Below are positions 39,076 through 56,151 of a stretch of 64,000 nucleotides of DNA, one piece after another. The notes below the pieces were generated by a model. The model worked only from the letters and a program-made list of their open reading frames with translations, was not told the DNA's origin and searched no databases. Location of the stretch: NCBI RefSeq assembly GCF_017347605.1, contig NZ_AP024484.1, positions 2,680,501-2,744,500 on the forward strand. Direction: 5' to 3'. The DNA is from Prevotella herbatica. Lineage in GTDB: Bacteria > Bacteroidota > Bacteroidia > Bacteroidales > Bacteroidaceae. Numbering within the stretch: the first letter of the stretch is position 1; each line of letters begins with the position of its first letter. The translations under genes were made by a program, and so were the position numbers.

Positions 39076-41022
39076 ATGAGTTATTTAAAATTTGAAAAAG
39101 CTCTGATGACGAATCTCCAAGAGTCATTACCAAGAGAGTTGCTTCGCACCAACCGCTCTGGAGCTTACTCTTGTTCCACTATTGTTGACTGTAATACCCG
39201 AAAGTATCATGGTCTGCTTGTCGTTCCGGTTCCAGAACTGGATGATGACAATCATGTATTACTTTCATCATTGGATGTTACAGTGGTTCAGCATGGCGCT
39301 GAATTTAATATGGGACTTCATAAGTATCAGGGTAATAACTACAGTCCAAAGGGACATAAGTATATTAAAGAGTTTGATTGCAATAAGGTTCCTACTACAA
39401 TTTATCGTGTAGGTGGAGTTATATTGAAAAAGGAAGTCGTGTTTCAGCATTATGAAGACAGAATTCTGATTCGTTATACGCTTGTTGATGCCCATTCTAT
39501 CACTACATTAAGAATACGTCCATTCCTAGCCTTTCGCAGTGTCAGGCAGTTTACTCATGAGAATTCTGTTGCTAGCAGAGATTATCAGCCTGTAGACAAT
39601 GGAATAAAGACTTGTATGTATCCGGGTTATCCTGAATTGTTTATGCAGTTTAGCACGGAAAACAAGTTCATGTTTAAGCCTGATTGGTATCGCGGTGTGG
39701 AATATCCAAAAGAACAGGAACGTGGATATGCCTCTGATGAGGATCTTTATGTTCCAGGATATTTCGAACTAGACATAAAGAAAGGCGAAAGCATTGTCTT
39801 TGCTGCTTCTATTTCTGAAAGTTCTACGGATAGCTTGAATGAACTGTTTGATACTGAGGTCGGCAAACGTACGCCAAGAGATAACTTTTTTCATTGTTTA
39901 GTCAATGCCGCTCATCAATTTCATATTCATGAGAACAATGATGATCGGTATATTCTTGCTGGTTATCCATGGTTCAAATGTCGTGCCCGTGACATGTTTA
40001 TCGCATTGCCAGGTCTCACTCTTTCTATAGAAGAACAGTATTATTTTGAACTTGTGATGAAGACGGCTCAAAAGGGACTTGATGAGTTTATGGAAGGCAA
40101 ACCGCTTTCGGTAAAGATTTATGAAATGGAACAGCCTGATGTACCGTTGTGGGTTATATGGTGTCTGCAACAGTATGCAAAGGAAGCCGGAATGCAGAAA
40201 TGCTTAGAGATGTACGGACCTTTCATGAAACGTATAATGACGTTTATAGAAAAAGGTAATCATCCTAATCTTAAAGTTATGGATAACGCTCTTGTCTATA
40301 CCAATGGTACTGATAAGGCCGTAACTTGGATGAACTCTACCGTAAATGGCAAACCTGTTGTGCCTCGTACGGGGTATATTGTTGAGTTCAATGCTTTATG
40401 GTATAATGCACTCAAGTTTTGCGCGTCAATAGCCCAGCTTGATAAAAAGAATAAGGAAGCTGAACACTTGGAAAAGACGGCTGAAAAATGCCGCAAGTCT
40501 TTCCTTGATATGTTCATGAATGAATATGGTTATCTGTTTGATTATGTAGGTGGAAATGACAAGGATTGGAGCGTAAGACCAAATATGATTTTCGCTGTTG
40601 CCTTGGATTATTCTCCTTTAGATCAAGACCAGAAAAAGAGCGTTTTGGATGTCTGTACACGTGAACTTCTTACTCCTAAGGGATTGCGTTCGCTGTCTCC
40701 AAAGAGTGGTGGATATAATCCTATGTATATAGGTCCGCAGACACAGCGCGATTATGCTTATCATCAAGGCACAGCGTGGCCTTGGCTTGGAGGTTTCTAT
40801 ATGGAAGCCTGCCTTAAACTCTATAAACGTACCAGACTGAGCTTCATAGAGCGTCAGATGGTTGGATATGAAGATGAAATGCTTAATCACTGCATAGGTA
40901 CTATTCCTGAACTCTTTGATGGCAATCCACCTTTCAATGGTCGAGGGGCAATATCATTCGCAATGAATGTGGCAGAGATACTTCGTACGCTCGAGCTTCT
41001 TGAAAAGTATAACTTTAAATAA
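39076..41022 (+). CDS. Glycogen debranching enzyme (amylo-alpha-1,6-glucosidase type)
   Basis: 648 residues. The N-terminal part matches bacterial-type debranching-enzyme N-domains (RTNRSGAYSCSTIVDCNTRKYHGLLV); the C-terminal (alpha/alpha)6 domain carries GYPWFKCRARDMFIALPGL, TWMNSTVNGKPVVPRTGYIVEFNALWYNAL and AYHQGTAWPWLGGFY, the GH133-like signature. It removes glycogen branch points. It is the first of three glycogen genes (debranching enzyme, GT4, GH57). Confidence 0.92.
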   Translation: MSYLKFEKALMTNLQESLPRELLRTNRSGAYSCSTIVDCNTRKYHGLLVVPVPELDDDNHVLLSSLDVTVVQHGAEFNMGLHKYQGNNYSPKGHKYIKEFDCNKVPTTIYRVGGVILKKEVVFQHYEDRILIRYTLVDAHSITTLRIRPFLAFRSVRQFTHENSVASRDYQPVDNGIKTCMYPGYPELFMQFSTENKFMFKPDWYRGVEYPKEQERGYASDEDLYVPGYFELDIKKGESIVFAASISESSTDSLNELFDTEVGKRTPRDNFFHCLVNAAHQFHIHENNDDRYILAGYPWFKCRARDMFIALPGLTLSIEEQYYFELVMKTAQKGLDEFMEGKPLSVKIYEMEQPDVPLWVIWCLQQYAKEAGMQKCLEMYGPFMKRIMTFIEKGNHPNLKVMDNALVYTNGTDKAVTWMNSTVNGKPVVPRTGYIVEFNALWYNALKFCASIAQLDKKNKEAEHLEKTAEKCRKSFLDMFMNEYGYLFDYVGGNDKDWSVRPNMIFAVALDYSPLDQDQKKSVLDVCTRELLTPKGLRSLSPKSGGYNPMYIGPQTQRDYAYHQGTAWPWLGGFYMEACLKLYKRTRLSFIERQMVGYEDEMLNHCIGTIPELFDGNPPFNGRGAISFAMNVAEILRTLELLEKYNFK

Positions 41023-41039
41023 ATGGGAGGAGATACAAT

Positions 41040-42308
41040 ATGAAAGTATTAATGTTCGGATGGGAATATCCTCCTCACGTATATGGTGGACTGGCAACAG
41101 CTAATTATGGAATTACTGAGGGACTGCATGCTCAAGGTGATGTTGATATAACTTTATGTCTTCCTAAGCCTTGGGGAGACGAGGATAAGACACCTGCAAA
41201 CATTGTGGCAATGAACTGCGTGCCGATTGCTTGGCGTGATGTTGATTATGATTACGTTAAGAACAAAATCGGCAACATAATGTCACCGGAGCTTTATTAT
41301 AAACTTCGTGATCATATCTATGGCGACTTCAATTATATGGGTGTCAATAATTTGGGTGCTATGGATTTCGCTGGTGGATATCCAGCTAACCTTCATGACG
41401 AGATAAACAATTATTCTGTAATTGCCGGAGTCGTGGCTAGAACAATGGATTTTGACATTATTCATGCTCACGACTGGCTTACTTATCCTGCTGGCATACA
41501 TGCAAAATATGCTAGTGGCAAACCATTGTGCATACATGTTCACGCCACAGACTTTGATCGTAGCCGTGGACATGTCAATCCTACAGTGTATGGAATCGAG
41601 AAGAATGGTATGGACAATGCCGACTGCATCATGTGTGTGAGCGAACTCACACGCCAGACGGTTATAAATCAATACCATCAGGACCCACGCAAAGTGTTTA
41701 CGGTTCATAATGCGGTGTATCCATTAGAGAAAGAATTGCAGGATATTCCACGCCCAGATCATAAGGGTAAGGAGAAAGTAGTAACTTTCCTGGGACGACT
41801 TACAATGCAGAAAGGACCAGAGTATTTTGTCGAGGCAGCCAATATGGTTCTTCACCGCACTCGCAATGTACGTTTCTGTATGGCTGGTTCGGGTGATATG
41901 ATGGATCAGATGATCTATCTTGCTGCAGAAAGAGGTATTGCAGATCGTTTCCACTTCCCAGGCTTTATGCGTGGAAAACAAGTCTATGAATGTCTTAAGG
42001 ATTCTGATGTTTATGTAATGCCTTCTGTGAGTGAGCCTTTTGGTATCTCTCCGCTTGAAGCTATGCAATGCGGAACACCTACAATCATATCAAAGCAGAG
42101 TGGCTGTGCCGAGATTCTTACCAACTGTATAAAGGTAGACTACTGGGACATCAATTCGCTTGCCGATGCCATTTATAGCATCTGTCACAACGAGAGTCTG
42201 TTTGATTATCTTTCTGTTCAAGGAAAGAATGAAGTAGATCAGATTACTTGGGAAAAGGTAGGCTTGTGGATACGTGAACTCTATGAACGCACTTTGGGGT
42301 GGCGCTAG
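41040..42308 (+). CDS. Glycosyltransferase family 4, glycogen-synthase-like
   Basis: 422 residues, GT-B fold. N-terminal MFGWEYPPHVYGGLATANYG, central VTFLGRLTMQKGPEYFVEAA and the EPFGISPLEAMQCGTP nucleotide-sugar site. Placed between debranching and GH57 genes, it probably makes or extends alpha-glucan. GT5-type starch synthases differ in the N-terminal KTGGLADV motif, which is absent here. Confidence 0.88.
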   Translation: MKVLMFGWEYPPHVYGGLATANYGITEGLHAQGDVDITLCLPKPWGDEDKTPANIVAMNCVPIAWRDVDYDYVKNKIGNIMSPELYYKLRDHIYGDFNYMGVNNLGAMDFAGGYPANLHDEINNYSVIAGVVARTMDFDIIHAHDWLTYPAGIHAKYASGKPLCIHVHATDFDRSRGHVNPTVYGIEKNGMDNADCIMCVSELTRQTVINQYHQDPRKVFTVHNAVYPLEKELQDIPRPDHKGKEKVVTFLGRLTMQKGPEYFVEAANMVLHRTRNVRFCMAGSGDMMDQMIYLAAERGIADRFHFPGFMRGKQVYECLKDSDVYVMPSVSEPFGISPLEAMQCGTPTIISKQSGCAEILTNCIKVDYWDINSLADAIYSICHNESLFDYLSVQGKNEVDQITWEKVGLWIRELYERTLGWR

Positions 42309-42345
42309 ATAAACTGAATAAAGTAAAATAGTAAAAGTATATAGC

Positions 42346-43809
42346 ATGAAGACAATTTGTTTATATTTCGAAATACATCAGATTCTACATCTGAAGAGAT
42401 ATCGTTTCTTTGATATCGGTACTGATCATTATTATTATGATGATTACGAGAATGAAAGAAGTACGATTGATATTACCGAGCGTTCTTATATGCCTGCGCT
42501 CAATGCGTTGCTTGATATGATCAAGGCTAATGGTGATTATTTCAAGGTAGCTTTCTCTCTTAGCGGTGTCGGTGTAGAACAGTTAGAGATGCATGCTCCG
42601 CAAGTGTTGGAAAAGTTACAGGAACTCAATAATACAGGCTGTGTGGAATTTCTTGCCGAACCTTATTCGCATGGTCTATCTTCACTTGTTAACGAGGACG
42701 GATTTGATGAGGAGGTGAAGCGCCAGTGCTCAAAGATGAATGAGTACTTTGGACAGTATCCAAAGGTATTGCGCAACTCGTCTCTCATATATAGTGATGA
42801 TATCGGACTGAAGGTTTCTCAGATGGGATTCAAGGGTATGCTCACTGAGGGTGCAAAACATGTATTAGGTTGGAAGTCTCCACATTATTTATATACTAGT
42901 GAGTTGGCTCCAAACTTGAAACTCCTGTTGCGTGATATAAATCTCAGCGATGACATTTCACTTCGTTTCAGCAATAAGGACTGGAGCGGATATCCATTGT
43001 TTGCTGATACTTACATCAATCGTATTGCAGGATTGCCTCAAGAGGAACAGGTAGTAAACATATTTATGGAACTTTCTGCTCTTGGCATCGCTCAGCCTTT
43101 GTCAAGCAATATTCTTGAATTCTTTAAGGCTTTGCCTGCTTGTGCCAAAGCTAAAAATATAACATTCTCTACGCCGACAGAGATTTGTGAGAATGTAAAG
43201 GCTGTCGATTCGCTAAATGTGCCAGACACGCTTAGTTGGATAGACGAAGAGCGTGATGTAAGTTCATGGCTAGGTAATCCTATGCAGCGTGAGGCTTTCA
43301 ATAAGTTGTATAGTGTTGCCGATCGTGTACGTATAGCTAACGATCCTCGTATAAATCAGGATTGGGATTATTTGCAGGCTAGCAACAACTTCCGTTTTAT
43401 GACAACGAAGCCAGCTGTTGTTGGTGTTGATCGTGGCATCTATAGCAGTCCTTTTGATGCTTTCACAAACTATATGAATATCCTTGGTGATTTCATCAAT
43501 CGTGTCAACAATCTTTATTCTACCGACATTGATAATGACGAACTTGAAGGCTTGCTCACAACGATCAAGAATCAAGGTGATGAAATTGAGATGAAGGATA
43601 AGGAGATTTCTCGTCTTCAGGCTAAGATTGAAAAGATTGAGACTGAAAGCGATAAGTTCCGTGAACAGGTAGAAGTAAAGTGTACTACAAAGAAAGAAAC
43701 TCCAAAAAAGTCTGTTGCAAAGAAAGAGACTATCAAGAAATCTGTTGCAAAGAAATCTGCAACGAAGAAAGTAGGGGAGGAGCCTGTTACGAATTCTTCT
43801 AAAGAGTAA
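42346..43809 (+). CDS. GH57-family alpha-glucan-acting enzyme with Lys-rich tail
   Basis: 487 residues, GH57 catalytic barrel: LYFEIHQILHLKRYRFF, LAEPYSHGLSSL and LRNSSLIYSDDIGLKV are family-like. The family acts as amylase or branching enzyme; no exact activity can be assigned. After a coiled coil (about residues 405-440) comes a Lys-rich repeat tail (KKSVAKKETIKKSVAKKSATKK). A terminator follows at 43907. Confidence 0.88.
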   Translation: MKTICLYFEIHQILHLKRYRFFDIGTDHYYYDDYENERSTIDITERSYMPALNALLDMIKANGDYFKVAFSLSGVGVEQLEMHAPQVLEKLQELNNTGCVEFLAEPYSHGLSSLVNEDGFDEEVKRQCSKMNEYFGQYPKVLRNSSLIYSDDIGLKVSQMGFKGMLTEGAKHVLGWKSPHYLYTSELAPNLKLLLRDINLSDDISLRFSNKDWSGYPLFADTYINRIAGLPQEEQVVNIFMELSALGIAQPLSSNILEFFKALPACAKAKNITFSTPTEICENVKAVDSLNVPDTLSWIDEERDVSSWLGNPMQREAFNKLYSVADRVRIANDPRINQDWDYLQASNNFRFMTTKPAVVGVDRGIYSSPFDAFTNYMNILGDFINRVNNLYSTDIDNDELEGLLTTIKNQGDEIEMKDKEISRLQAKIEKIETESDKFREQVEVKCTTKKETPKKSVAKKETIKKSVAKKSATKKVGEEPVTNSSKE

Positions 43810-43906
43810 TATATATAATTACCCTGATGTGATGATTTAGTCGTAGCTCATTTGGGCTTATTCCCAATATGAGTTTATTATTTTATAGTGATAATTATTT
43901 TGAGTA

Positions 43907-43938
43907 GGGAAGTCAGTAAAGACTGACTTCCCTTTTTT
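43907..43938 (+). terminator. Glycogen-operon terminator
   Basis: Perfect 11-bp stem GGGAAGTCAGT/ACTGACTTCCC with a 4-base loop, then TTTTTT. Confidence 0.92.
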
Positions 43939-43952
43939 GTTCGCCCTGCATG
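43932..43952 (+). repeat. 21-bp direct repeat, left copy
   Basis: Identical to 44533-44553: CTTTTTTGTTCGCCCTGCAT plus one G. It begins in the T-run of the terminator and enters the HigB fragment. Confidence 0.85.
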
Positions 43953-44083
43953 GTGACAAGAAAGCTAAATCTTCTATCAGAGCCAATGACAAATATCGTA
44001 TTGAGTTCACTATAGATGAGAATTTAGAAACGCCTGTTCTCACGGTATGCAACATTATAGAATTGTCGAACCATTATAAATAA
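43934..44083 (+). pseudogene. HigB-type toxin, C-terminal fragment
   Basis: The frame reads ...ALHGDKKAKSSIRANDKYRIEFTI...LTVCNIIELSNHYK and stops at 44081. Its R-x-N-D-x-Y-R-I core is the usual end of HigB/RelE-like toxins. About half of the protein, including the start, is absent; the preceding bases are a terminator. Intact HigA follows 8 bases later. Confidence 0.7.
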
Positions 44084-44090
44084 TGAAGAT

Positions 44091-44435
44091 ATGATCACAT
44101 TAAGAGGCATTGACCCAAAAATGATCGCCAACAACCTGGAATCATCAATGTTGATTCATCCAGGAGAAATGATAAAGGATGAAATTGAGAGTCGTGGCAT
44201 GACCCAAAAGAAACTCGCTAACATGACTGGCATTGCTCCATCGGTGCTCAACGAGGTGCTTAATGGCAAGCGCTCTGTTACCACAGAATATGCCCTGCTG
44301 ATAGAAGCTGCCCTTGACATTGATGCAGACATGTGGATTGGTCTTCAGGCAGACTACGATAAGCAGAAAGCTCGTAACGACAAATCCTTCATCAAAAGGC
44401 TGGAAGAGATTAGAAAATATGCGGTGATGCTTTAA
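44091..44435 (+). CDS. HigA-family antitoxin, orphan
   Basis: 114 residues with an Xre-type helix-turn-helix, HPGEMIKDEIESRGMTQKKLANMTGIAPSVLNEVLNGKRSV, diagnostic for HigA addiction-module antitoxins. The partner toxin is truncated, so this gene survives as an orphan and could still repress its own promoter or neutralise related toxins. The initiator may be a later Met, since the first ten residues are not typical. Confidence 0.88.
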   Translation: MITLRGIDPKMIANNLESSMLIHPGEMIKDEIESRGMTQKKLANMTGIAPSVLNEVLNGKRSVTTEYALLIEAALDIDADMWIGLQADYDKQKARNDKSFIKRLEEIRKYAVML

Positions 44436-44532
44436 GCACACTCTATAAGATGCACTATACCCTAAGTAAGCATAATGATAATGTAAGACAAGGGGAAAAA
44501 TAAGAGTATAATAAATATATTATTCCTGAGGA

Positions 44533-44553
44533 CTTTTTTGTTCGCCCTGCATG
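44533..44553 (+). repeat. 21-bp direct repeat, right copy
   Basis: Exact copy of 43932-43952, 601 bases downstream. With the left copy it brackets the HigB fragment and HigA. Confidence 0.85.
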
Positions 44554-44590
44554 AGTATATTCTAATATGGCTTGACGTATAGAAACTTGA

Positions 44591-44749
44591 TATAAAGCTG
44601 GAATACTGAATATTATCATTGATAAATTCAAAGATATATCTTCAGCAGAAATATCAGCAATGAGTCACAAAGAAGATCCATGGAAAAAATATCATGACTG
44701 CGACAATCTCATTTCATATAATGAAGCATTCAAATTGAGTACTGTCTGA
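44591..44749 (+). pseudogene. Panacea-domain (DUF4065/SocA-like) C-terminal fragment
   Basis: 52 residues ending FKDISSAEISAMSHKEDPW....ISYNEAFKLSTV, which fits the C-terminus of Panacea antitoxin-type proteins (SHKEDPW block). It has no start codon and an upstream stop at 44588. Probably a remnant of another toxin-antitoxin unit. Confidence 0.55.
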
Positions 44750-44757
44750 CTATTGAA

Positions 44758-44856
44758 TGAATATACCGTTCCCGCTAATTCCCGCAGATATTCTTTTCTT
44801 TGTAGGTAACTATAGCATCTGCTAAAGCAGATGTATTCTCCCATAGATATCTTTCC
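44758..44856. repeat. Dispersed CGCAGATT repeat, copy 4
   Basis: Contains TTCCCGCAGATATTC, the hairpin GCATCTGCTAAAGCAGATG and TCTCCCATAGAT, all of which recur in copies 5 and 8. Confidence 0.65.
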
Positions 44857-44900
44857 TTACTTTCATTTCCGAAACAACATAGATTACTTTTCACCTGTGG

Positions 44901-44927
44901 CAGTTGTCAAGTAATCCTTGACAACTG
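44901..44927. repeat. Perfect inverted repeat, 11-bp arms
   Basis: CAGTTGTCAAG, five bases, then CTTGACAACTG. The GTTGTCAA/TTGACAAC word resembles the ends of the CRISPR repeat, possibly by chance. Confidence 0.5.
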
Positions 44928-45010
44928 AGTTTCATTCTAACTCTTTATCCTTTAGTACATTAACAATATACATACTAGCATAAAGAATAGAGGTGATAAA
45001 AAATTTAAGC

Positions 45011-45084
45011 AAAAAAATGGGTGACTCTCGCCACCCTAAATGTTTTCACAACGGAATAATCCTTATTGTGATTAGCTAAATTTT
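45011..45084 (-). ncRNA. tracrRNA
   Basis: On the minus strand the anti-repeat (45084-45065) is complementary to the first 20 bases of the repeat in its minus-strand orientation, 19 Watson-Crick pairs and one G-U pair without a bulge. It is followed by a nexus-like hairpin GGA-TTA-TTCC and the stretch CCGTTGTGAAAAC, and ends in a GC-rich hairpin (GGGTG/CACCC) with seven T (45011-45017). The region pairs crRNA to Cas9. It lies divergent from cas9. Confidence 0.82.
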
Positions 45085-45087
45085 ATG

Positions 45088-45119
45088 CAAATATCATGAT
45101 TATTTTTGTAAATTGCAAA
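45088..45119 (-). promoter_or_regulatory. tracrRNA promoter
   Basis: Minus-strand TTTG (45116-45119), 20 bases, GATATTTG (45088-45095), which differs by one base from TAnnTTTG. Transcription would begin at the edge of the anti-repeat. Confidence 0.6.
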
Positions 45120-45138
45120 TTTTAAGACATTTTTTTTA

Positions 45139-45146
45139 TAACTTTG
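45139..45146 (+). promoter_or_regulatory. cas9 promoter -7 element
   Basis: TAACTTTG ends 29 bases before the cas9 ATG at 45176. A possible TTG at 45113-45115 is 23 bases upstream, slightly long. Confidence 0.55.
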
Positions 45147-45175
45147 CTAATACTTTAACCAAAACAACACTAATT

Positions 45176-48100
45176 ATGGCAAAAATTCTAGGTTTGGACT
45201 TAGGAACCAATAGTATAGGATGGGCATTAGTTGATAATACCAGTAAACAAATTATCAAAGCAGGAAGTAGAATTATTCCCATGGATGCAAAAGCTATGTC
45301 TGACTTTGAATCAGGTAATCTCCAATCTTCAGCAGCAGCAAGGACTGAATTCAGAGGCATTCGTAGATTAAATGAACGTGCAGAACTCAGAAGACAAAGA
45401 TTACTCCGAGTGCTGAATGTACTTAATTTCTTACCTGCTCACTTTCAAAAACAAATTGATTTCGATAAGCATCCCGGACAATTTATTAACCATGGTGAAC
45501 CCCTTTTGCCATATCGAAAGGATAGCAATAATAAAAATGAATTTATATTTATGGATTCATTTAAGGAGATGCTTGAAGAATTTAGAGAGATTCATCCTGA
45601 TATGTTGGCTGAAGGTCGCAAGATACCTTACGACTGGACTATATATTATTTGAGAAAGAAGGCTCTTATTCAGCCAATTAAACGAGAAGAATTGGCGTGG
45701 ATATTGCTCAACTTTAATACAAAACGTGGTTACTATCAACTGCGTGGTGAAGAGGATGATATATCAACTTCTAAGAATGAAGAATACAAGGTGCTTAATG
45801 TTGTTAATGTAGAAAAACTGGATGCAGTAAAAAATAAAAAAGGATTGTATTGGTACGATATTACTTACGATAATGGTGCCAAACAACGCAAAACTGGTAT
45901 CATTGATCCTAGAAATATAGGTGACCAAGTTGAAGTTATTGTCACTACAACTTTAGATAAAGAGGGAAATATAGCTTTAGATAAAGAGGGAAATCCTAAG
46001 ATTAAACTGCGCGATCCTCAAGAAGGCGATTGGACTCTGATGAAAAAACGAACTGAGGCGGATCTGAATAATAGAAATATTACTGTAGGTGAATATATAT
46101 ATGATTCAATTCTTGCAGACCCTACAATTAAAGTTAGAGGTAAACTTGTTAAAACCATTGAACGCAAGTATTATAAAGAAGAATTGATTAAAATTCTCAA
46201 TAAGCAATGTGAATTTATACCAGAGTTAAGCGACTCAAATATTTATGAAAAGTGTGTAAGAGAATTATATCATAATAATGAGGCACATATTCAATCTCTG
46301 TATCAATCTAGTTTTACGAGTTTCTTTGTAGATGATATTATTTTTTACCAGCGCCCACTTAAAAGTAAGAAAAGCGAAATAGCTAACTGCCCTTATGAAC
46401 ATTATCAGTTTGTAAATAAAGACACTGGGGAAATCGTAAAGCAACCTATAAAGGTTATACCTAAGTCACATCCCATTTATCAGGATTTCAGACTATGGCA
46501 GTTTATTTCAAATCTGCGAGTGATTCAGAAAGAAAAAAATGAAAATGGGAAATTGAAAACAGACGTAGATGTTACAGATGAATTTATAAATACAGCAGAG
46601 AAACGTTGTAAACTCTACGAACAACTTAACGTACGCAAAGATATTAACAATAATCAGTTTGTTAAGTTGATTTGCAAAGAGAACGCTTCTCTGTATAGAT
46701 GGAATTATGTTGAGGATGATAAAACTTATCCTTGTAACGAAACTCGATATCTCATAAACCGAGATAACATATTGCAAAGTGATGAGCGATATAATAAGAA
46801 AGAAATTGAATTATGGCATATATTATATTCTGTAAATGATCCTATTTTGCTAAGAAAAGCACTCAATACTTTTGCAACTAAAAATGGTCTTGATGTGGAG
46901 ACTTTTGTAGAGGATCATATCCATATTAAGCCATTCAATGCTGATTATGGTGCATATTCAGAAAAAGCTTTAAAACGATTACTACCACTTATGCGTATAG
47001 GTAAATACTGGCATGAGGAGGATATTGATGCAAAGACTAGAAGTAAGATTGATATTATAATAGCTGGAGATGCTGATGATGCAATCTATGATGTAGCTGC
47101 AAAAAATCATATTAACTTGTCTTCAATTGACTCATTTCAAGGATTACCACTATTTCTAGCTGAGATGATTGTTTACGGCAAACGTAAAGAAGTGGGTATT
47201 TGGAAATCTCCAGATGACATAACGTATTATCTCAAATATGATTTTAAACAGCATGCGCTACGTAATCCGGTTGTAGAAACTGTGTTAGGAGAAACATTGC
47301 GTGTTGTCAGGGATATATGGGCTAAATATGGCAAAATAGACGAAATACATGTTGAGATGGGACGCAATTTAAAGCAGTCTAAAGATAAGAGGATAAAGGA
47401 CATGCAGCGTAATTCAAATAATGAACATACAAACTTGAGAATACGAAGACTACTTCAAGAGTTTGTAAACCCTGACTGTGAAATAGATAATGTGCGCCCA
47501 TATTCTCCATCTCAGATGGAACTCTTTAAAATTTACGAAACAGATGTGCTTAATTCAAATGAACCTGATGATGATATTTTGTCTATAATCAAAGACCTTG
47601 GAGACACATCTAAACATGTATCTCATCAAGAAATTATTAAATATAGATTGTGGCTTGAACAGAGATACACATCTCCATATACTGGTGATATGATACCATT
47701 GTCAAAGCTCTTCACCCCAGCCTATGAAATAGAACATGTAATACCTCAATCTAGATATTTCGATGACTCACTTAGTAATAAAGTAATCTGCGAAAGCGAA
47801 GTCAATAAGCTGAAAGATAATAGATTGGGATACGAGTTTATTGTTGCTGAGCATGGTCACATCATTGGTAAGCATCGTGTATTTGATAAAATACAATACG
47901 AGGAATATGTGAGGGAGCACTATGCCAATGACAGACTTAAGATGAAAAAATTATTAATGGAGGACATTCCTGATTCGTTCATCCAGAAGCAACTTAATGA
48001 TAGTAGATATATTGCTCGTAAGACCATCGAGATCTTGTCTAGTGTCGTTAGAGTAACTGATGAGAGCGGAGAAATAGCTGATAATGATAAGGCAGCAACA

Positions 48101-49644
48101 GCTATAAATGTAATAGCTACAAATGGCTCAATTACAGATCATCTTAAAAAAGATTGGGGCGTTAAGCAAGTATGGAATCATATTATAGCACCTAGATTTG
48201 AGCGATTAAATAAAATTACATCAACGGAGCAGTTTGGTAAATGGATTGAGAAAAATGGAAAAAGGTATTTCCAAACTGAAGTTCCGATTGATCTGTCCCC
48301 TGGTTTCAATAAGAAACGTATAGATCATCGTCACCACGCAATGGATGCAATCGTTATAGCTTGTGCTACTCGCAACCATGTTAACTATTTGAATAACAGT
48401 GCTGCTATTGACAAGAAGGCTGATTTACGTATGGACTTGCGTAGCAAACTCTGTTTTAAGGATAAGACTGATGGTAATGGCAACTATGTATGGCGACTTA
48501 ACAAGCCATGGGATACTTTCACACAAGATGTTGAGTCACAACTAGATTCTATTATTGTCAGTTTTAAGCAGAATTTACGTGTAATTAATAAAATGACCAA
48601 TCACTACTCACATTATGTGAATGGAAAGAAAGAAATCGTTTCCCAGAATAGTACAGAGAGTTGGGCGGTTCGAAAATCTTTGCATAAAGCTACTGTATCT
48701 GGTGCTGTACGTCTGCAAACACAAAAGAAGGTTAGCTTAAAAGATGCATTGAACACCGATTGGCATCTCATAGCTGATAAAGAAGTACGCAAAGCCATTA
48801 AAGATATAATTGCACAGTATCACAAATTCGATACTAAAATCATACTAAAGTATTTCAAAGATCGAAAAAATGAGTTGAATGGAAAAGATATATCAAAGGT
48901 AGTTGTATATTATACCCCTGAAGTTCCTGAACTATCAGCTTCAAGAATAGCTATTGATGATACATTTGATGAGAAAAAAATCAATGCAGTTACAGATAGT
49001 GGAATACGTAACATTCTACTTAATCATTACAAAGCAAACGACAGTGATCCTAAATTGGCTTTCTCTCTAGAAGGTATTACCCGAATGAATCAGAATTTTA
49101 AAGAACTGAATGGAGGTAAAGACCACAAACCAATTATGAAGGTGAGAAAATTCGAAACGCTAGGAATGAAATTTTCAATAGGTGAAAGAGGTAATAAAAA
49201 TAAGAAATATGTTGAAGCTGATAAAGGAACAAATTTATTTTTTGCTATTTATGCAGATAAAGATGGAAATCGTTCATTTGAAAGCATACCTTTTAATGAA
49301 TCTCTGGAATGCATGGAAAATAATTTGCCAGTGGCAAAAGACATCAATGATAAAGGCGAAAAACTTCAGTTTATATTATCTCCTGGAGACTTAGTTGTTG
49401 TAACAGATGAAAATGGTACTATTCCAAATGTGGATAATGCTAGGATTTATAAAATGATGTCATCATCTGATAAAGATTGTTTTTTTATCCCCCAATCAAT
49501 TGCGATGCCTATTGTTAAGACAGCCGAATTAGGCTCAAATAATAAATCTGAGAAATCATGGGATGGCGTGGCTATTAAAAAGAACTGTTTCAAACTAATT
49601 GTAGATCGATTAGGGAATGTTGAAAAAATAATCAAAGGGAATGT

Positions 49645-49648
<4 letters not shown>
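45176..49648 (+). CDS. cas9: Cas9, type II-C
   Basis: RNA-guided DNA endonuclease, 1,490 residues, large for the II-C subtype. The start at 45176 (MAKILGLDLGTNSIGW) is placed behind the -7 element; the frame is open to 45113 but would begin upstream of it. RuvC-I D8; Arg-rich bridge helix about residues 60-80 (RRLNERAELRRQRLLR); RuvC-II E727 (HVEMGRNLKQ); HNH E853-H854 (YEIEHVIPQSRYFDDS); RuvC-III H1054 and D1057 (RIDHRHHAMDAI). All catalytic residues are present. A short in-frame duplication (DKEGNIALDKEGN) lies about residues 259-274. Confidence 0.97.
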
Positions 49649-50914
<1,266 letters not shown>

Positions 50915-50918
50915 AAAA

Positions 50919-50952
50919 CGGGATTTCTATATTAAATAGAATTCCCGCTTTT
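50919..50952 (+). terminator. cas operon terminator
   Basis: CGGGATTTCTAT pairs with ATAGAATTCCCG (one mismatch) around a five-base loop, then CTTTT. Confidence 0.75.
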
Positions 50953-51022
50953 AATCTTGATTCTTTTTTTATTTCTAATACACAACGTAAAGCATTGATT
51001 TACAATTATATATAAAGATCAA

Positions 51023-52576
51023 GTTGTCAATGCACTTGCAAAGATATGAAAAATTTAGCTAATCACAACATCAAAACGCATGACGAACTGTACTGCCAGT
51101 TGTCAATGCACTTGCAAAGATATGAAAAATTTAGCTAATCACAACCTATATTAGTCAAACCCTCTGGTGTAGGCAGTTGTCAATGCACTTGCAAAGATAT
51201 GAAAAATTTAGCTAATCACAACGGTTGGTAGGTAATTACCTTTCTTGTCAGCGTTGTCAATGCACTTGCAAAGATATGAAAAATTTAGCTAATCACAACA
51301 GTGACTTTCTTGGTAAGATAGAAAGCACGTTGTCAATGCACTTGCAAAGATATGAAAAATTTAGCTAATCACAACTAATATCATCGTGTTTTATACCGAA
51401 CCCTAGTTGTCAATGCACTTGCAAAGATATGAAAAATTTAGCTAATCACAACTGTTGATGGTAGCGAACAAGCTGCCGATTTGTTGTCAATGCACTTGCA
51501 AAGATATGAAAAATTTAGCTAATCACAACTAGTGACGGCACGGTTAAAACTATCAGAGAGTTGTCAATGCACTTGCAAAGATATGAAAAATTTAGCTAAT
51601 CACAACCCTCGTACGATTACACCTATACGGAGAGCGGTTGTCAATGCACTTGCAAAGATATGAAAAATTTAGCTAATCACAACAATTATTCTCTTGAATA
51701 ATATCATTAACTGTTGTCAATGCACTTGCAAAGATATGAAAAATTTAGCTAATCACAACTTGATAATACCTATTCTTATTGTTCTAAGGTTGTCAATGCA
51801 CTTGCAAAGATATGAAAAATTTAGCTAATCACAACTTAATACATCTGATATTCGTTTGGCACGTGTTGTCAATGCACTTGCAAAGATATGAAAAATTTAG
51901 CTAATCACAACCATAATCAAACAGTCTTTTACATATACCTGTTGTCAATGCACTTGCAAAGATATGAAAAATTTAGCTAATCACAACCCAAGTCCTTCAG
52001 TCCTTCTTCTCCGTGCAGTTGTCAATGCACTTGCAAAGATATGAAAAATTTAGCTAATCACAACTACGGTCGTGGCGTTCGTGTTGACGCTAAAGTTGTC
52101 AATGCACTTGCAAAGATATGAAAAATTTAGCTAATCACAACCTAGCACAGGGTTACAATTTCAGCAAGGTCGTTGTCAATGCACTTGCAAAGATATGAAA
52201 AATTTAGCTAATCACAACTTTGTCAAGGAAGCGTAACGGCACGTAGAAGTTGTCAATGCACTTGCAAAGATATGAAAAATTTAGCTAATCACAACCAGAT
52301 ACCGACAAACTGTAATAGACATTGCGTTGTCAATGCACTTGCAAAGATATGAAAAATTTAGCTAATCACAACAGATGGACTTTCATCAGGATTTTAATTG
52401 TGTTGTCAATGCACTTGCAAAGATATGAAAAATTTAGCTAATCACAACACCTTATCATTTGCTTTGGCGTCCGTTCCGGTTGTCAATGCACTTGCAAAGA
52501 TATGAAAAATTTAGCTAATCACAACCCATGTTCATCTTAGAACGTCCGATTCCGTGTTGTCAATGCACTTGCAAAG
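51023..52576 (-). CRISPR. CRISPR array: 20 full 47-bp repeats plus one truncated repeat, 20 spacers
   Basis: First repeat 51023-51069, last full repeat 52479-52525; repeats begin GTTGTCAATGCACTTGCAAA and end TTTAGCTAATCACAAC on the + strand. All 20 look identical. Spacers are 29-30 bases. A 21-base truncated repeat (52556-52576) closes the right end. I assign transcription to the minus strand because each repeat then contains a promoter (TTG at repeat bases 2-4, TATCTTTG at 24-31), the first 20 bases match the tracrRNA anti-repeat, and every spacer is followed by a full repeat. Spacer targets could not be found in this window. Confidence 0.95.
52556..52576 (-). promoter_or_regulatory. Truncated end repeat with leader-type promoter
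   Basis: Only 21 repeat bases remain, the part downstream of the -7 element on the minus strand. The preceding non-repeat base pairs with it to give TACCTTTG (a perfect -7, 52573-52580). It would drive the first spacer. Confidence 0.55.
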
Positions 52577-52653
52577 GTACACAAAAAATAATACACAAGA
52601 ATGGTATTATATAAATTTTTCAAAGAACAATTCAAATCTATAAAAACGCAAAA

Positions 52654-52675
52654 GGGATGCGCTTTAGCACATCCC
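52654..52675 (-). terminator. Terminator of the HU/smalltalk unit
   Basis: GGGATGTGCT/AGCGCATCCC hairpin (one mismatch) followed by TTTTGCGTTTTT on the minus strand. The same hairpin occurs in the relic at 13.8 kb. Confidence 0.7.
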
Positions 52676-52794
52676 TCTGTTGTTATCCTGCCATCCATAC
52701 CGTGCAGCTAAGTAGCGCTGTGAGCGCTGCAATTAACCATATTAAGTTGGTTATGATTTTAATTAAGTCGTTGAAATCGTGATAGCTCACTCGG

Positions 52795-52902
52795 CTATTC
52801 CTGTGTTTCGTTCTGTTGCGTTCCAAGCAACCCCAGAAGACTTGAAGCGATAGCGATTACTATCTTGATTATCCATGAAATGTTTACTTTGTTCTTATCC
52901 AT
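52795..52902 (-). CDS. Smalltalk-like membrane peptide
   Basis: 35 residues: MDKNKVNISWIIKIVIAIASSLLGLLGTQQNETQE. One hydrophobic helix with a SLLGLLG end, as in the 'smalltalk' peptides that often follow HU-like genes in Bacteroidales. No function is known. It starts 73 bases behind the HU stop. Confidence 0.7.
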   Translation of the reverse strand: MDKNKVNISWIIKIVIAIASSLLGLLGTQQNETQE

Positions 52903-52975
52903 TGTTTGTGTTTGTTTTTAATTTGTTGTTTGTTTAAAAGCAATGTCCCCCTGTGCGCATCAGGGGGAACGATGT

Positions 52976-53446
52976 TTAAGGCTTTACGACTCCGCCGTTT
53001 GGATCACCTGTTTTTGGTGCACCCTTGATCTTGTTGTACTCTGCGTACTCCTTGACCTGCGTACCGGTTACCAATGCCTTGGTGCGTGTCTTTGAACCTG
53101 CGTCTACATGTGCTTCCGGACTGAAGCGGATGTTGACTTTCTTGATGTTCTTGGCTGGTGTGAACTCCTTGATACTGTCTGCGCCTACACATTTCAGTGT
53201 GAGCTTGAATGAACCTAGTCCTGCGATCTTTACGATTTTTGAGTCCTGAAGTTCGGCTGTCATCACCTCTGCAAGTTCTGTGAGTACTGCTAGTACATCA
53301 CTCTTTTTAACTGAGCAGTTTGCCTGAATCTTTTCTGCCATGTCATCAAGTTGAGCTATTCCGTGATAGACGGCACGAGCGTAAAACTTGTTATAGGTTT
53401 TCAGATTCTTTTTGTTTTTGTTCATGTAAATTTTGTAATTCAGCAT
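52976..53446 (-). CDS. HU-family DNA-binding protein, Bacteroidetes variant
   Basis: About 156 residues; I chose the ATG at 53446 (MLNYKIYMNKNKKN), behind AAAGGAAAAAG, over a longer frame. It has an HU-type fold (VKKSDVLAVLTELAEVMTAEL, VKIAGLGSFKLTL) and a long C-terminal tail. These proteins accompany VirE/smalltalk cassettes. It probably shapes DNA of the element. Confidence 0.85.
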   Translation of the reverse strand: MLNYKIYMNKNKKNLKTYNKFYARAVYHGIAQLDDMAEKIQANCSVKKSDVLAVLTELAEVMTAELQDSKIVKIAGLGSFKLTLKCVGADSIKEFTPAKNIKKVNIRFSPEAHVDAGSKTRTKALVTGTQVKEYAEYNKIKGAPKTGDPNGGVVKP

Positions 53447-53639
53447 GTTTCTTTTTCCTTTCGTTTTAAATTGTTTTTTTACTGTTTGAGACTTGCTGAA
53501 AGCATCATATATGTGCACCTATAATGTTCCTCCTTTCATTAAGCCCAGTCACCTGATTTTCAAATGACGTTACAAAGGTACTCGTATTTTTTAAGGCTTG
53601 CAATGAAATACTCGTTGGGGTGTTAGCCAAAGTAGTATA

Positions 53640-53815
53640 AGGTCTGTTCTCCCATAGATTCACGCTGATATTCTTTTGTTTTATTACTCGTTCTTTGCAT
53701 GTGTAAACGGCCTATTCTCTCGCAGATTACGCTGATTCACGCAGAGAAAGACAGATTGGGGCAATAGATCTGCTAAAGCAGATGTCGCAGAGAACGCAGA
53801 CAAAAGACAGTTTGG
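53640..53815. repeat. Dispersed CGCAGATT repeat, copy 5
   Basis: Starts with TTTTGTTTTATTACTCGTTC then TTTGCATGTGTAAACGGCC and CTATTCTCTCGCAGATTACG, a long leading segment that also ends copy 8 in inverted form. Includes the hairpin ATCTGCTAAAGCAGAT. Confidence 0.75.
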
Positions 53816-53935
53816 GATTGCGTAACACTGTGAGAATATATCACAGCAATTCCTTTCTAAGCTATCTGATATTTACTAAAATCGTGCATATCTATAGTTT
53901 AGAATAATACAAAACTAAGATTAATTCATTCTTTG

Positions 53936-54083
53936 TATCTAAAAAATGCCCAAATACTGAATTGAGTACCTCGTTTGCTCTTTACTTGATACCCTACAGA
54001 TATAATCACATCAAAGGATTATTAGGTTCAGCATAAAGATTATAAATTATAACTCGCTTTACGTAGGATTCTAATTCAGACAT
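53936..54083 (-). pseudogene. RhuM-family protein fragment
   Basis: On the minus strand FDVIISVGYQVKSKRGTQFS (then IWA) is the conserved core of RhuM-type proteins. A frameshift separates it from an upstream MSELESYVKRVIIYNLYAEP piece. No complete gene remains. Confidence 0.55.
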
Positions 54084-54110
54084 CATCACCAAGCGCATAA
54101 TAATATTGTG

Positions 54111-54156
54111 AAGAGCAATCGTAAGACACCTCATTTAATGTTTTACGATTGCTCTT
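54111..54156 (-). terminator. Hairpin behind the toxin-antitoxin pair
   Basis: Perfect 14-bp arms AAGAGCAATCGTAA and TTACGATTGCTCTT, 18-base loop, 17 bases behind the antitoxin stop. Confidence 0.6.
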
Positions 54157-54172
54157 AAATTAAACATTCAAG

Positions 54173-54463
54173 TTAGAATTGGACATCAATTCGAAGTTTG
54201 CCCCCTAATCCTCGTTCAACAATATCAAAAAGCGTTTTCAATGTGATATTTTCACTATCATTCTCAACTTTAGAGATAAAGGAACGTTTCTTGTCAATTT
54301 TAGTTGCAAGTTCCAACTGAGTCATTTTTAAACTTTCACGAGCAGCACGAAGTTTTACGCCTATACGAAGTGCTGCCATTTCGCTCTCCAATTTATCTCG
54401 CTTTGGAGTGCCAACAGTACCATAATACTTGTCTTTAATCTGATCTAATGTTTTTGTTTCCAT
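54173..54463 (-). CDS. Xre-family antitoxin
   Basis: 96 residues, starts METKTLDQIKDKYYG. The helix-turn-helix is KLRAARESLKMTQLELATKIDKKRSFISKVEND. The ATG at 54463 follows AAAGGAGTG and the toxin stop, so it is preferred over a longer frame starting at 54487. It completes a HigBA/RelBE-like pair with the upstream toxin. Confidence 0.88.
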   Translation of the reverse strand: METKTLDQIKDKYYGTVGTPKRDKLESEMAALRIGVKLRAARESLKMTQLELATKIDKKRSFISKVENDSENITLKTLFDIVERGLGGKLRIDVQF

Positions 54464-54464
54464 A

Positions 54465-54803
54465 TTACACTCCTTTCTTTTTGTCATTATAATATTCTGC
54501 CTTTATCCGTTCGGCGCGTTCAATTTCTCTTTTAGGTGTCTTTTTCTGAAATCCACTTAGTAGCACTATTAGTTTATTGCCGTCAAAGAAACAAAATATG
54601 CGAAAGATATTTCCATTGAGTATCACTCTAACCTCAAATAGTCCTTCTGTACCTTCAATATACTTAAGATAGGTAACGGGAATCCGTTCAACCTGCTCTA
54701 TAAGGTCGAGAATCTTAATAATCTTATCTTGGACCTTAGAGGATTGTTCCTTAAAAAAGTCTTCAAAATAGGATTTATAAGTGGTTACTTCTCGATATTT
54801 CAT
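54465..54803 (-). CDS. RelE/HigB-like toxin (Gp49-type)
   Basis: 112 residues from MKYREVTTYKSYFEDFF. ParE/RelE-type fold with the EVRVILNGNIFRIFCFFDG and VLLSGFQKKTPKREIERAERI blocks of Gp49/HigB toxins, which cleave mRNA on the ribosome. Toxin first, antitoxin second. A perfect TACCTTTG lies 5 bases before the ATG, hinting at a leaderless transcript. Confidence 0.88.
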   Translation of the reverse strand: MKYREVTTYKSYFEDFFKEQSSKVQDKIIKILDLIEQVERIPVTYLKYIEGTEGLFEVRVILNGNIFRIFCFFDGNKLIVLLSGFQKKTPKREIERAERIKAEYYNDKKKGV

Positions 54804-54808
54804 GTGTA

Positions 54809-54816
54809 CAAAGGTA
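54809..54816 (-). promoter_or_regulatory. -7 element of the toxin-antitoxin operon
   Basis: Minus-strand TACCTTTG, 5 bases upstream of the toxin ATG. Confidence 0.5.
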
Positions 54817-54940
54817 ATATATAAATTACATTCAAACAAGAATATCTTTAAAAAAATGATGATATATTTTTATCTAATGCTAATTTCCGAATAAAAATCG
54901 TTTTAAAAGAATACTCAATCTATTGCCAAAGAAGAAATCC

Positions 54941-54985
54941 ATTTGTCCGATGGTTACAAAAAAGTTTTGTTACCTTCGGACAAAT
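54941..54985. repeat. Imperfect 21-bp inverted repeat, loop of 3
   Basis: ATTTGTCCGATGGTTACAAA(A) pairs with the right arm with 2 mismatches. It would form a stable hairpin in a gap with no gene; no T-run follows. Confidence 0.65.
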
Positions 54986-55071
54986 GTTTTGAGAGATTTA
55001 CCCCAATTAATTATATCAATAAGTAAATTTACCATTTCCAAAAAACACGGTCATATCCTTACCTTTTATTT

Positions 55072-55268
55072 CGCATGTATGAACGGCCTATTCTCACGCA
55101 GATTATGCAGACAAACCACACTAACGACCAGCTGCCTTTCTCTGCGAAATAATGCAGCTTGCTGCATTCATCTGCGTGATCTGCGCTATCTGCGAGAGAA
55201 TAACACGCAAGAGGACTCAATCTATTTTTGCGCAATGAACCCCCAATGTCTCTCGCTGATTGACGCAG
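55072..55268. repeat. Dispersed CGCAGATT repeat, copy 6
   Basis: Begins GCATGTATGAACGGCCTATT then CTCACGCAGATTATGC, and holds GATCTGCGCTATCTGCGAGA inverted blocks and CTCTCGCTGATTGACGCAG. Confidence 0.75.
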
Positions 55269-55367
55269 ACTACACCCTAAATGAATTTCGTAAAACAAAA
55301 CTGAACCCTAAAAGTTTTTGTCTAACTTCTGGAGTTCAGTTCAAATTCATATTATCTTATTTTATCC

Positions 55368-55871
55368 CTAATCTTTTTGAGGATTAGATTCGTCGTCATT
55401 TGATTCTTTTGGATTCTTCTTTAACACAAAAACTATCGCTATTGATATTAAAGAAACAATAATAGTCCCAGCCAACCAGTCATGTCCTTTATATCCTAAG
55501 AAAAATGCTACAGCTATAAAGATCAAGGCTAAAATGAATCCCATCCACTGCCCAGTCTTGCTTTCTTTTATCCGTGAAGCTATTATTTTCTTTTCGCATT
55601 CAACTCTATGAGTTAATTGCTTTTCTGCCATAATCAAAATTCTTTCGGGTGCATCACGAACAACATTTCCATACTTCTTGAAATCATCAGGAGATGGTAA
55701 AGGACCACTAAATGAAGTCTCCTGCATAGCAACAAACGCACGAGCTATAACGTCTCGTTTTTCAGGTTCAATTGTTTCTAGAACTTCATTTAAGTCAATT
55801 GTTTTTTCGTTTTCTTCAGACTCAGTTAATGTTGGTGTTTCTTCTTTATTTTGTGTTTTTTCCTTATTCAT
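55368..55871 (-). CDS. DUF2335 membrane protein
   Basis: 167 residues. An acidic N-terminus, a conserved SGPLPSPDDFKKYGNVVRDAPERILIMAEKQLTHR segment typical of DUF2335 and two C-terminal transmembrane helices. Phage- and island-linked; function unknown. It starts 10 bases after the upstream small gene. Confidence 0.8.
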   Translation of the reverse strand: MNKEKTQNKEETPTLTESEENEKTIDLNEVLETIEPEKRDVIARAFVAMQETSFSGPLPSPDDFKKYGNVVRDAPERILIMAEKQLTHRVECEKKIIASRIKESKTGQWMGFILALIFIAVAFFLGYKGHDWLAGTIIVSLISIAIVFVLKKNPKESNDDESNPQKD

Positions 55872-55881
55872 ATTAAAGTGG

Positions 55882-56151
55882 TTATCTTTTACTGAAATTA
55901 ATCATTGATAATCTAATATCATTTCCAATCGCTTTCCAATCATTTTTTACATCATCGATGTTATTACCTTTCATATAATCAGATAATAAATCCTTTCTAT
56001 TTATATCAAAAATAGAAGAAAAACCGCTTTGAAAAGATGGTAAATTTCTCATCAATGCAGAATTACGTCGCAACTGACAATTGATTTTATCAACCAATTT
56101 ATCATTCCTACGAGTTGAATTTATTTGTCTTTCAGTAATCATTCTTTTCAT
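55882..56151 (-). CDS. 89-residue protein upstream of DUF2335, unknown
   Basis: MKRMITERQINSTRRNDKL... about 89 residues from the ATG at 56151, which lies 11 bases behind the TATATTTG -7 element at 56163-56170. A charged N-terminal half may be helical and DNA-binding. Co-transcribed with the DUF2335 gene. No family recognised. Confidence 0.6.
   Translation of the reverse strand: MKRMITERQINSTRRNDKLVDKINCQLRRNSALMRNLPSFQSGFSSIFDINRKDLLSDYMKGNNIDDVKNDWKAIGNDIRLSMINFSKR

What the first reader, a model, noticed from the sequence alone, without database searches (positions are those of the whole stretch)
51023..52576. Every CRISPR repeat carries a complete Bacteroidales promoter on the minus strand
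Seen: the minus-strand repeat has TTG at bases 2-4 and TATCTTTG at 24-31, 19 bases apart, which is the Bacteroidales -33/-7 consensus and spacing. Transcription would start about 10 bases before each spacer. Known: Neisseria and Campylobacter type II-C arrays have promoters in each repeat, read against the leader. Inference: each spacer here makes its own short crRNA without a leader, which would make expression independent of array position.
Basis: partly seen in the sequence, partly recalled or inferred. Interest (0 to 1): 0.72.

Follow-up and report, generated by a model that had tools for sequence, protein, structure and literature searches.

The report
CRISPR repeats that contain promoters
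In this gut-type bacterium every copy of the CRISPR repeat contains what looks like a working gene-start signal of its phylum, on the strand that makes the guide RNAs, and the same signal is kept in the long CRISPR-Cas9 repeats of most relatives examined, so each stored spacer can probably be switched on without the usual leader.

Summary
All 20 identical 47-nt repeats (51023-52525) carry TTG (2-4) and TATCTTTG (24-31), 19 nt apart, on the minus strand; the terminal fragment keeps TACCTTTG (52579-52572). The minus strand is the crRNA strand: a tracrRNA gene upstream of cas9 (antirepeat 45084-45066) pairs with repeat bases 1-20.

The motif is not chance. Of 147 distinct long Bacteroidota II-C repeats, 110 have exact TAnnTTTG 17-23 nt after the 5' TTG; controls give 0-4 of 147, and 0 of 27 type I repeats carry it. 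In gene 5' flanks of the same genomes TTG peaks 18-20 nt before TAnnTTTG, the spacing used in most repeats. Of 47 tracrRNA genes, 34 have the same box 2-8 nt before the antirepeat. Terminator-like hairpins flank the array; no external -33/-7 pair was found.

Repeat promoters are known in Neisseria and Campylobacter II-C, and a TTG alone was proposed in Flavobacterium. I found no earlier report of the complete sigma-ABfr promoter in long Bacteroidota repeats; one Riemerella paper denies it. Transcription itself is unproven, and "independent of array position" does not follow: read-through could favour leader-proximal spacers.

The parts
51023..52525 (-). 20 identical 47-nt repeats with 19 spacers between them (29-30 nt); in each repeat starting at plus coordinate s, the -7 box TATCTTTG lies at s+16..s+23 and the -33 TTG at s+43..s+45 (minus strand)
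   Evidence: only such array in the genome
52556..52579 (-). leader-distal terminal repeat fragment; keeps the -7 box as TACCTTTG (52579-52572) and the 3' half of the repeat, lacks the tracrRNA-pairing half; nearest TTG is 16 nt upstream, not 18-20
52651..52678 (-). intrinsic terminator between the upstream minus-strand gene (52976-53518) and the array
   Evidence: scan; fold -19.3 kcal/mol, z -4.8
50914..50956 (.). inverted repeat between cas2 and the array (15 pairs on the minus strand), terminator-like on both strands (fold z -5.4 on minus, -4.0 on plus)
   Evidence: not flagged by the consensus scan
50915..51022 (.). [quoted passage not shown] no TAnnTTTG on either strand
   Evidence: PMC6008519
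45019..45084 (-). tracrRNA gene: antirepeat 45084-45066 pairing with repeat bases 1-20, terminator 45036-45019
45088..45119 (-). tracrRNA promoter-like elements: TTTG 45119-45116, GATATTTG 45095-45088 (one mismatch to TAnnTTTG), 20 nt apart, ending 3 nt before the antirepeat
   Evidence: relatives
45176..49648 (+). cas9 (type II, TIGR01865)
49645..50595 (+). cas1 (TIGR03639, type II)
50609..50914 (+). cas2 (TIGR01573)

Best explanation
Each repeat of this type II-C array is also a promoter of the Bacteroidota primary sigma factor (sigma-ABfr), with its -33 TTG at repeat bases 2-4 and its -7 TATCTTTG at 24-31 on the crRNA (minus) strand. RNA polymerase starts near base 35-37 of a repeat, transcribes the last ~11 nt of that repeat, the spacer and the 5' half of the next repeat, and goes on towards the leader. 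tracrRNA, made from a promoter of the same kind beside cas9, pairs with the 5' half; trimming gives the crRNA. Shown by sequence: the elements, their conservation and spacing, the crRNA strand, the tracrRNA gene and the terminator-like hairpins. Inferred: actual initiation, the start base, read-through and processing.
For: All 20 repeats carry both elements. The crRNA strand is fixed independently by the antirepeat: score 39 against 23 for the other strand, duplex -26.6 kcal/mol over bases 1-20 and a short further stretch. First set: exact TAnnTTTG on the strand antisense to cas1 in 68 of 97 distinct long repeats, on the other strand in 1 of 97; within-repeat shuffles give mean 2.2, maximum 7. 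Second set of new distinct repeats: 46 of 55 against 1 of 55. Pooled with controls: 110 of 147 at spacing 17-23; wrong spacings 1, 2 and 4; wrong strand 1; reversed motif 0. Type I-B/I-C repeats of Bacteroidales: 0 of 27. In gene 5' flanks of the same genomes TTG before TAnnTTTG is clearly enriched only at gaps 18-20 (5.9, 9.8, 8.0% against about 2.2% in coding sequence); 53 of 66 repeats of the first set and 40 of 46 of the second use gaps 18-20. The box lies mostly outside the tracrRNA pairing (17.0 of 18 bases paired in the 5' part, 3.1 of 8 in the box). 34 of 47 tracrRNA genes have the same box 2-8 nt before the antirepeat. Only 3 of 67 long-repeat arrays have a -33/-7 pair in the 130 nt upstream on the crRNA strand.
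Against: No RNA evidence. The -33 TTG is also the usual repeat end and part of the antirepeat pairing, so it is not independent evidence. Degenerate terminal repeats do not keep a TTG in place, and only 18 of 28 keep the -7 box exactly. Under even conditioning the nn positions of the box vary hardly more than the specified ones (about 8% against 5%), so the octamer is conserved as a block, which other constraints could also cause. 36-nt II-C repeats mostly lack the box (3 of 32 carry it on the strand antisense to cas1, none on the other), so it is not needed for every II-C system.
Confidence: 0.85

Rival explanations
1. The TATCTTTG block is conserved for spacer integration: Cas1-Cas2 or a host factor reads CAAAGATA inside the repeat as a ruler or binding site, and its likeness to a promoter is incidental.
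For: The octamer is conserved as a block, including the two free positions, and TC at those positions is commoner in repeats (85 of 113) than in gene promoters (54 of the 5'-flank sites, about one in six). Terminal repeats, which no longer take spacers, lose it in 10 of 28 cases.
Against: It matches the phylum's promoter word at the promoter's own preferred distance from TTG. 36-nt II-C repeats served by the same Cas1 family mostly lack it. tracrRNA genes, which take no spacers, carry the same box at the start of the antirepeat.
Confidence: 0.1
2. The array is transcribed from a single promoter outside it (for instance the lone TAGATTTG at 52640-52633, or read-through from the minus-strand gene at 52976-53518), and the repeats are processed from one long precursor.
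For: A lone TAGATTTG lies about 60 nt before the terminal fragment; a minus-strand gene points at the array.
Against: That -7 word has no TTG at 18-20 nt. Two terminator-like hairpins stand between the gene and the array, the nearer at 52678-52651. Only 3 of 67 long-repeat arrays have an upstream -33/-7 pair. It leaves the conservation of the box unexplained.
Confidence: 0.05
3. Only the -7 box matters and the repeats are weak promoters; the -33 is a by-product of the repeat end (a milder form of the best explanation).
For: TTG is fixed for other reasons; the base before it is G while gene promoters prefer T. Terminal repeats keep -7 more often than -33.
Against: Spacing clusters at 18-20, the distance enriched in gene promoters.
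Confidence: 0.3

Closest known systems
Repeat-embedded promoters of Neisseria meningitidis and Campylobacter jejuni type II-C arrays (Zhang 2013, Dugar 2013, as cited in PMC12080349 and PMC10309648)
   Same: cas9-cas1-cas2 system; promoter inside each repeat on the crRNA strand; transcription towards the end where new spacers enter; degenerate first (oldest) repeat; terminator upstream of some arrays.
   Different: Those repeats are 36 nt with a sigma-70-like -10 at the 3' end and a start inside the spacer (my knowledge). Here the repeat is 47 nt, the elements are sigma-ABfr-type, and the predicted start lies ~11 nt before the spacer, so the whole spacer and a repeat remnant would be transcribed.
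Flavobacterium columnare and F. psychrophilum II-C arrays (PMC8092290, PMC10309648)
   Same: Same phylum; repeat-encoded promoter proposed; transcription towards the leader.
   Different: Only a TTG was named, in 36-nt repeats in F. columnare, backed by eight reads; no -7 box in the repeat was given. 36-nt repeats fetched here mostly lack TAnnTTTG.
Riemerella anatipestifer CRISPR1 (PMC5006608, PMC6008519)
   Same: 47-nt repeats, cas9-cas1-cas2, 107-bp leader after cas2 with a long palindrome, antirepeat upstream of cas9; new spacers enter on the cas2 side.
   Different: The authors found no promoter in the repeats and predicted leader promoters, using a predictor (BDGP) not built for Bacteroidota. 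Their repeat sequence was not in the text I could read.
sigma-ABfr promoters of Bacteroides (PMC7366714)
   Same: TAnnTTTG at -7 and TTTG/TTG at about -33 with variable spacing.
   Different: Known for gene promoters; B. thetaiotaomicron has no CRISPR array, so this was not seen there.

Membership tests
Type II-C CRISPR-Cas | cas9, cas1 and cas2 only, no csn2 or cas4 | tested here: met
   cas9, type II cas1 and cas2 adjacent, then the array
Type II-C CRISPR-Cas | tracrRNA with antirepeat complementary to the repeat | tested here: met
   antirepeat 45084-45066 with terminator
sigma-ABfr promoter | -7 TAnnTTTG | tested here: met
   TATCTTTG in all 20 repeats
sigma-ABfr promoter | -33 TTG (TTTG best) at the usual spacing | tested here: met
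   gap 19, the peak of the gene-flank calibration; base before TTG is G, so not the full TTTG
sigma-ABfr promoter | initiates transcription at the predicted base | not testable with these tools
   needs primary-transcript data or a reporter
Repeat-embedded promoters as in Neisseria/Campylobacter II-C | promoter in every repeat on the crRNA strand | tested here: met
   by sequence only
Repeat-embedded promoters as in Neisseria/Campylobacter II-C | transcription start inside the spacer, so the crRNA 5' end needs no trimming | tested here: inconclusive
   predicted start at repeat base 35-37, ~11 nt before the spacer, which would not meet it; prediction only, no RNA ends mapped
Repeat-embedded promoters as in Neisseria/Campylobacter II-C | RNase III not needed for function | not testable with these tools
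   needs an experiment

The most novel reading that the evidence does not exclude
Across Bacteroidota, long II-C repeats carry a complete sigma-ABfr promoter that starts RNA inside the repeat, and tracrRNA genes place the same promoter so that RNA starts at the antirepeat. Both guide RNAs would then come from one constitutive promoter class without a leader, and read-through along the tandem promoters would give the newest, leader-proximal spacers the most RNA.
Probability: 0.4. Interest if true: 0.65.

Novelty: new variant of a known kind. Interest (0 to 1): 0.5.

Why it matters
It would explain how a large group of gut, oral and rumen bacteria express Cas9 guides, and would overturn a published statement that such repeats hold no promoter. 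It gives a sequence rule (TTG-N18-20-TAnnTTTG) for orienting II-C arrays in Bacteroidota; current tools orient II-C arrays inconsistently (PMC12638026). It also sets up a clear test of whether tandem repeat promoters favour new or old spacers.

Tried and rejected
Rfam found no tracrRNA or CRISPR family in 40000-56000. The sigma-70 scan is no guide in this phylum and stayed near its shuffle background (43 against 38.8). A first comparison of specified and free box positions gave 5.6% against 16.2%; this was largely due to how pairs were chosen, and with even conditioning it shrank to about 5% against 8%, so I do not use it as proof of promoter-specific selection. Terminal repeats as a test: many are cut sharply near the box, so retention (18 of 28) is only suggestive. 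The idea that the box explains the unusual repeat length was dropped: some 36-nt repeats have a near-match in the same place (L177 TATCTTAG, L128 TACCTTAG). Leader promoter: no TAnnTTTG on either strand of 50900-51022. The single genome-contig scan returned almost only Bacteroidota relatives, so no II-C repeats of other phyla were compared.

Full report
WHAT IS THERE. The window lies in one contig of 3.52 Mb; the closest named relatives of its Cas1 are Prevotella (77% identity). cas9 (45176-49648), cas1 (49645-50595) and cas2 (50609-50914) lie on the plus strand, followed by a 108-nt AT-rich gap and the array. The array has 20 identical 47-nt repeats, 29-30-nt spacers, and a terminal fragment at 52556-52579. 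No other exact copy of the repeat was found in the genome.

THE CLAIMED MOTIF. On the minus strand each repeat reads GTTGTGATTAGCTAAATTTTTCATATCTTTGCAAGTGCATTGACAAC: TTG at 2-4, TATCTTTG at 24-31, 19 nt between. In random 47-mers of the same composition a TTG-N18-20-TAnnTTTG occurs in 0.07%; when the inside of this repeat is shuffled with TTG held in place it occurs in 0.5%.

WHICH STRAND MAKES crRNA. A scan for complementarity to the first 24 nt of either repeat strand found a strong antirepeat for the minus strand only (score 39 against 23), 90 nt upstream of the cas9 match on the minus strand. It is AAAATTTAGCTAATCACAA (45084-45066), pairs with repeat bases 1-20 (best duplex -26.6 kcal/mol), and is followed by hairpins and the terminator GGGTGGCGAGAGTCACCC-ATTTTTTT. 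Among 78 long-repeat arrays in loci of at least 8 kb, the strand antisense to cas1 gave the better antirepeat in 62, the other strand in 9. So the crRNA strand was set without using the promoter motif.

COMPARATIVE TEST. Loci with type II Cas1 were taken from Bacteroidales and from the whole phylum and arrays were extracted by script. Of 97 distinct repeats of 43 nt or more, 68 carry exact TAnnTTTG on the strand antisense to cas1 and 1 on the other. Shuffling the 3' part of each repeat gives 2.2 on average and at most 7; after clustering similar repeats, 32 of 54 clusters against 1.4 expected. A second collection gave 46 of 55 new long repeats against 1. Pooled, 110 of 147 repeats with a recognisable 5' end have the box 17-23 nt after TTG. 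The same count at three wrong spacings gives 1, 2 and 4, on the wrong strand 1, with the motif reversed 0. Type I-B and I-C repeats from Bacteroidales, including the I-B array of this same genome, have none (0 of 27); they are shorter, 29-33 nt.

SPACING. In the 5' flanks of long ORFs of the same loci, TTG before TAnnTTTG is clearly enriched only at gaps 18, 19 and 20 (5.9, 9.8 and 8.0% of 287 sites; about 2.2% in coding sequence). In the repeats, gaps 18-20 make up 53 of 66 in the first set and 40 of 46 in the second. The window repeat has gap 19, the peak of the gene calibration.

ANATOMY OF THE REPEAT. Aligned across relatives there are three conserved blocks: the tracrRNA-pairing part (bases 1-18), the -7 octamer, and the 3' end. 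The stretch right after the octamer is the least conserved, mostly 0.05-0.5 bits. Pairing with tracrRNA covers on average 17.0 of the first 18 bases but 3.1 of 8 in the octamer, so pairing does not explain the octamer.

tracrRNA. Of 47 antirepeats upstream of cas9, 34 have TAnnTTTG ending 2-8 nt before the first paired base, most often 4 (15 of 47). The window has a one-mismatch version, GATATTTG, 20 nt after TTTG and 3 nt before the antirepeat. The same distance applied to the repeat puts the crRNA start near base 35-37, about 11 nt before the spacer; this is an inference by analogy.

INSULATION. A minus-strand gene at 52976-53518 points at the array, but terminator-like hairpins stand at 52968-52946 and 52678-52651. 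On the other side a hairpin at about 50914-50956 folds well on both strands (z -5.4 and -4.0). Between the nearer upstream terminator and the array there is only a lone TAGATTTG at 52640 without a TTG at the right distance. Among 67 long-repeat arrays only 3 have a -33/-7 pair in the 130 nt upstream. Terminators upstream of II-C arrays and mutated first repeats were described before as possible ways to avoid useless crRNAs (PMC12080349).

TERMINAL REPEATS. The leader-distal repeat often loses its tracrRNA-pairing half. Of 28 such degenerate repeats whose consensus has the box, 18 keep it in place; in the window it is kept with a change at a free position (TATC to TACC). The TTG is not kept in place. 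This fits a need for a promoter but not for an intact -33, and sharp truncations near the box blur the test.

WHAT DOES NOT FOLLOW. No terminator-like feature recurs in the repeats, so transcripts may pass through several units. Read-through along tandem promoters would raise, not equalise, the RNA of leader-proximal spacers. Position-independent expression is therefore possible but not implied, and short primary crRNAs need processing at the 3' end and probably at the 5' end.

PRIOR WORK. Promoters in II-C repeats are established for Neisseria and Campylobacter (cited in PMC12080349 and PMC12638026). For Bacteroidota a TTG alone was proposed in F. columnare (eight reads, PMC8092290) and taken over for F. 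psychrophilum (PMC10309648). For the 47-nt Riemerella repeats the authors found no promoter (PMC5006608). I found no paper in the held library that names the -7 box in long Bacteroidota repeats; most subscription journals and preprints are not covered.

VERDICT. Observation confirmed; promoter reading well supported by independent comparative evidence but not by RNA; the consequence drawn for expression is only one of the possibilities. A new variant of a known kind.

Noticed in passing
L133, L143, L145, L148-L150, L152, L155, L157, L159, L163 (36-nt repeats): 36-nt Bacteroidota II-C repeats lack TAnnTTTG but many end in TAnnTT or GATATT at bases 31-36, in most of them 20 nt after a TTTG at 7-10. 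A promoter completed by the spacer, with a start inside the spacer as in Neisseria, is possible.
   Followed up: partly
L031, L033, L041, L071, L080, L087, L094, L102, L107, L195, L196: A group of 36-nt II-C arrays is inverted: the GTTGTGGTTTGA end that should mark the crRNA strand lies on the cas strand, so crRNA would run from the leader. No promoter in the repeat; 2 of 10 have a -33/-7 pair upstream of the array on that strand.
   Followed up: partly
L127, L129, L134, L142, L317: A group of long repeats has GTTCTTTG or TTTCTTTG where the box should be, in loci of other families of the phylum; it may track a different promoter consensus there.
   Followed up: no
window 54173-54839, minus strand: Two overlapping small ORFs that look, by eye, like a RelE/HigB-type toxin and a helix-turn-helix antitoxin, not far from the array.
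   Followed up: no
window 44091-44435, plus strand: HigA-type antitoxin gene (TIGR02607) about 600 nt from the tracrRNA gene; no toxin partner was looked for.
   Followed up: no
G000:C1:1091301-1092296 (L226): The same genome has a second system, type I-B by its Cas1, with an array of 30-nt repeats that lack TAnnTTTG on both strands.
   Followed up: yes
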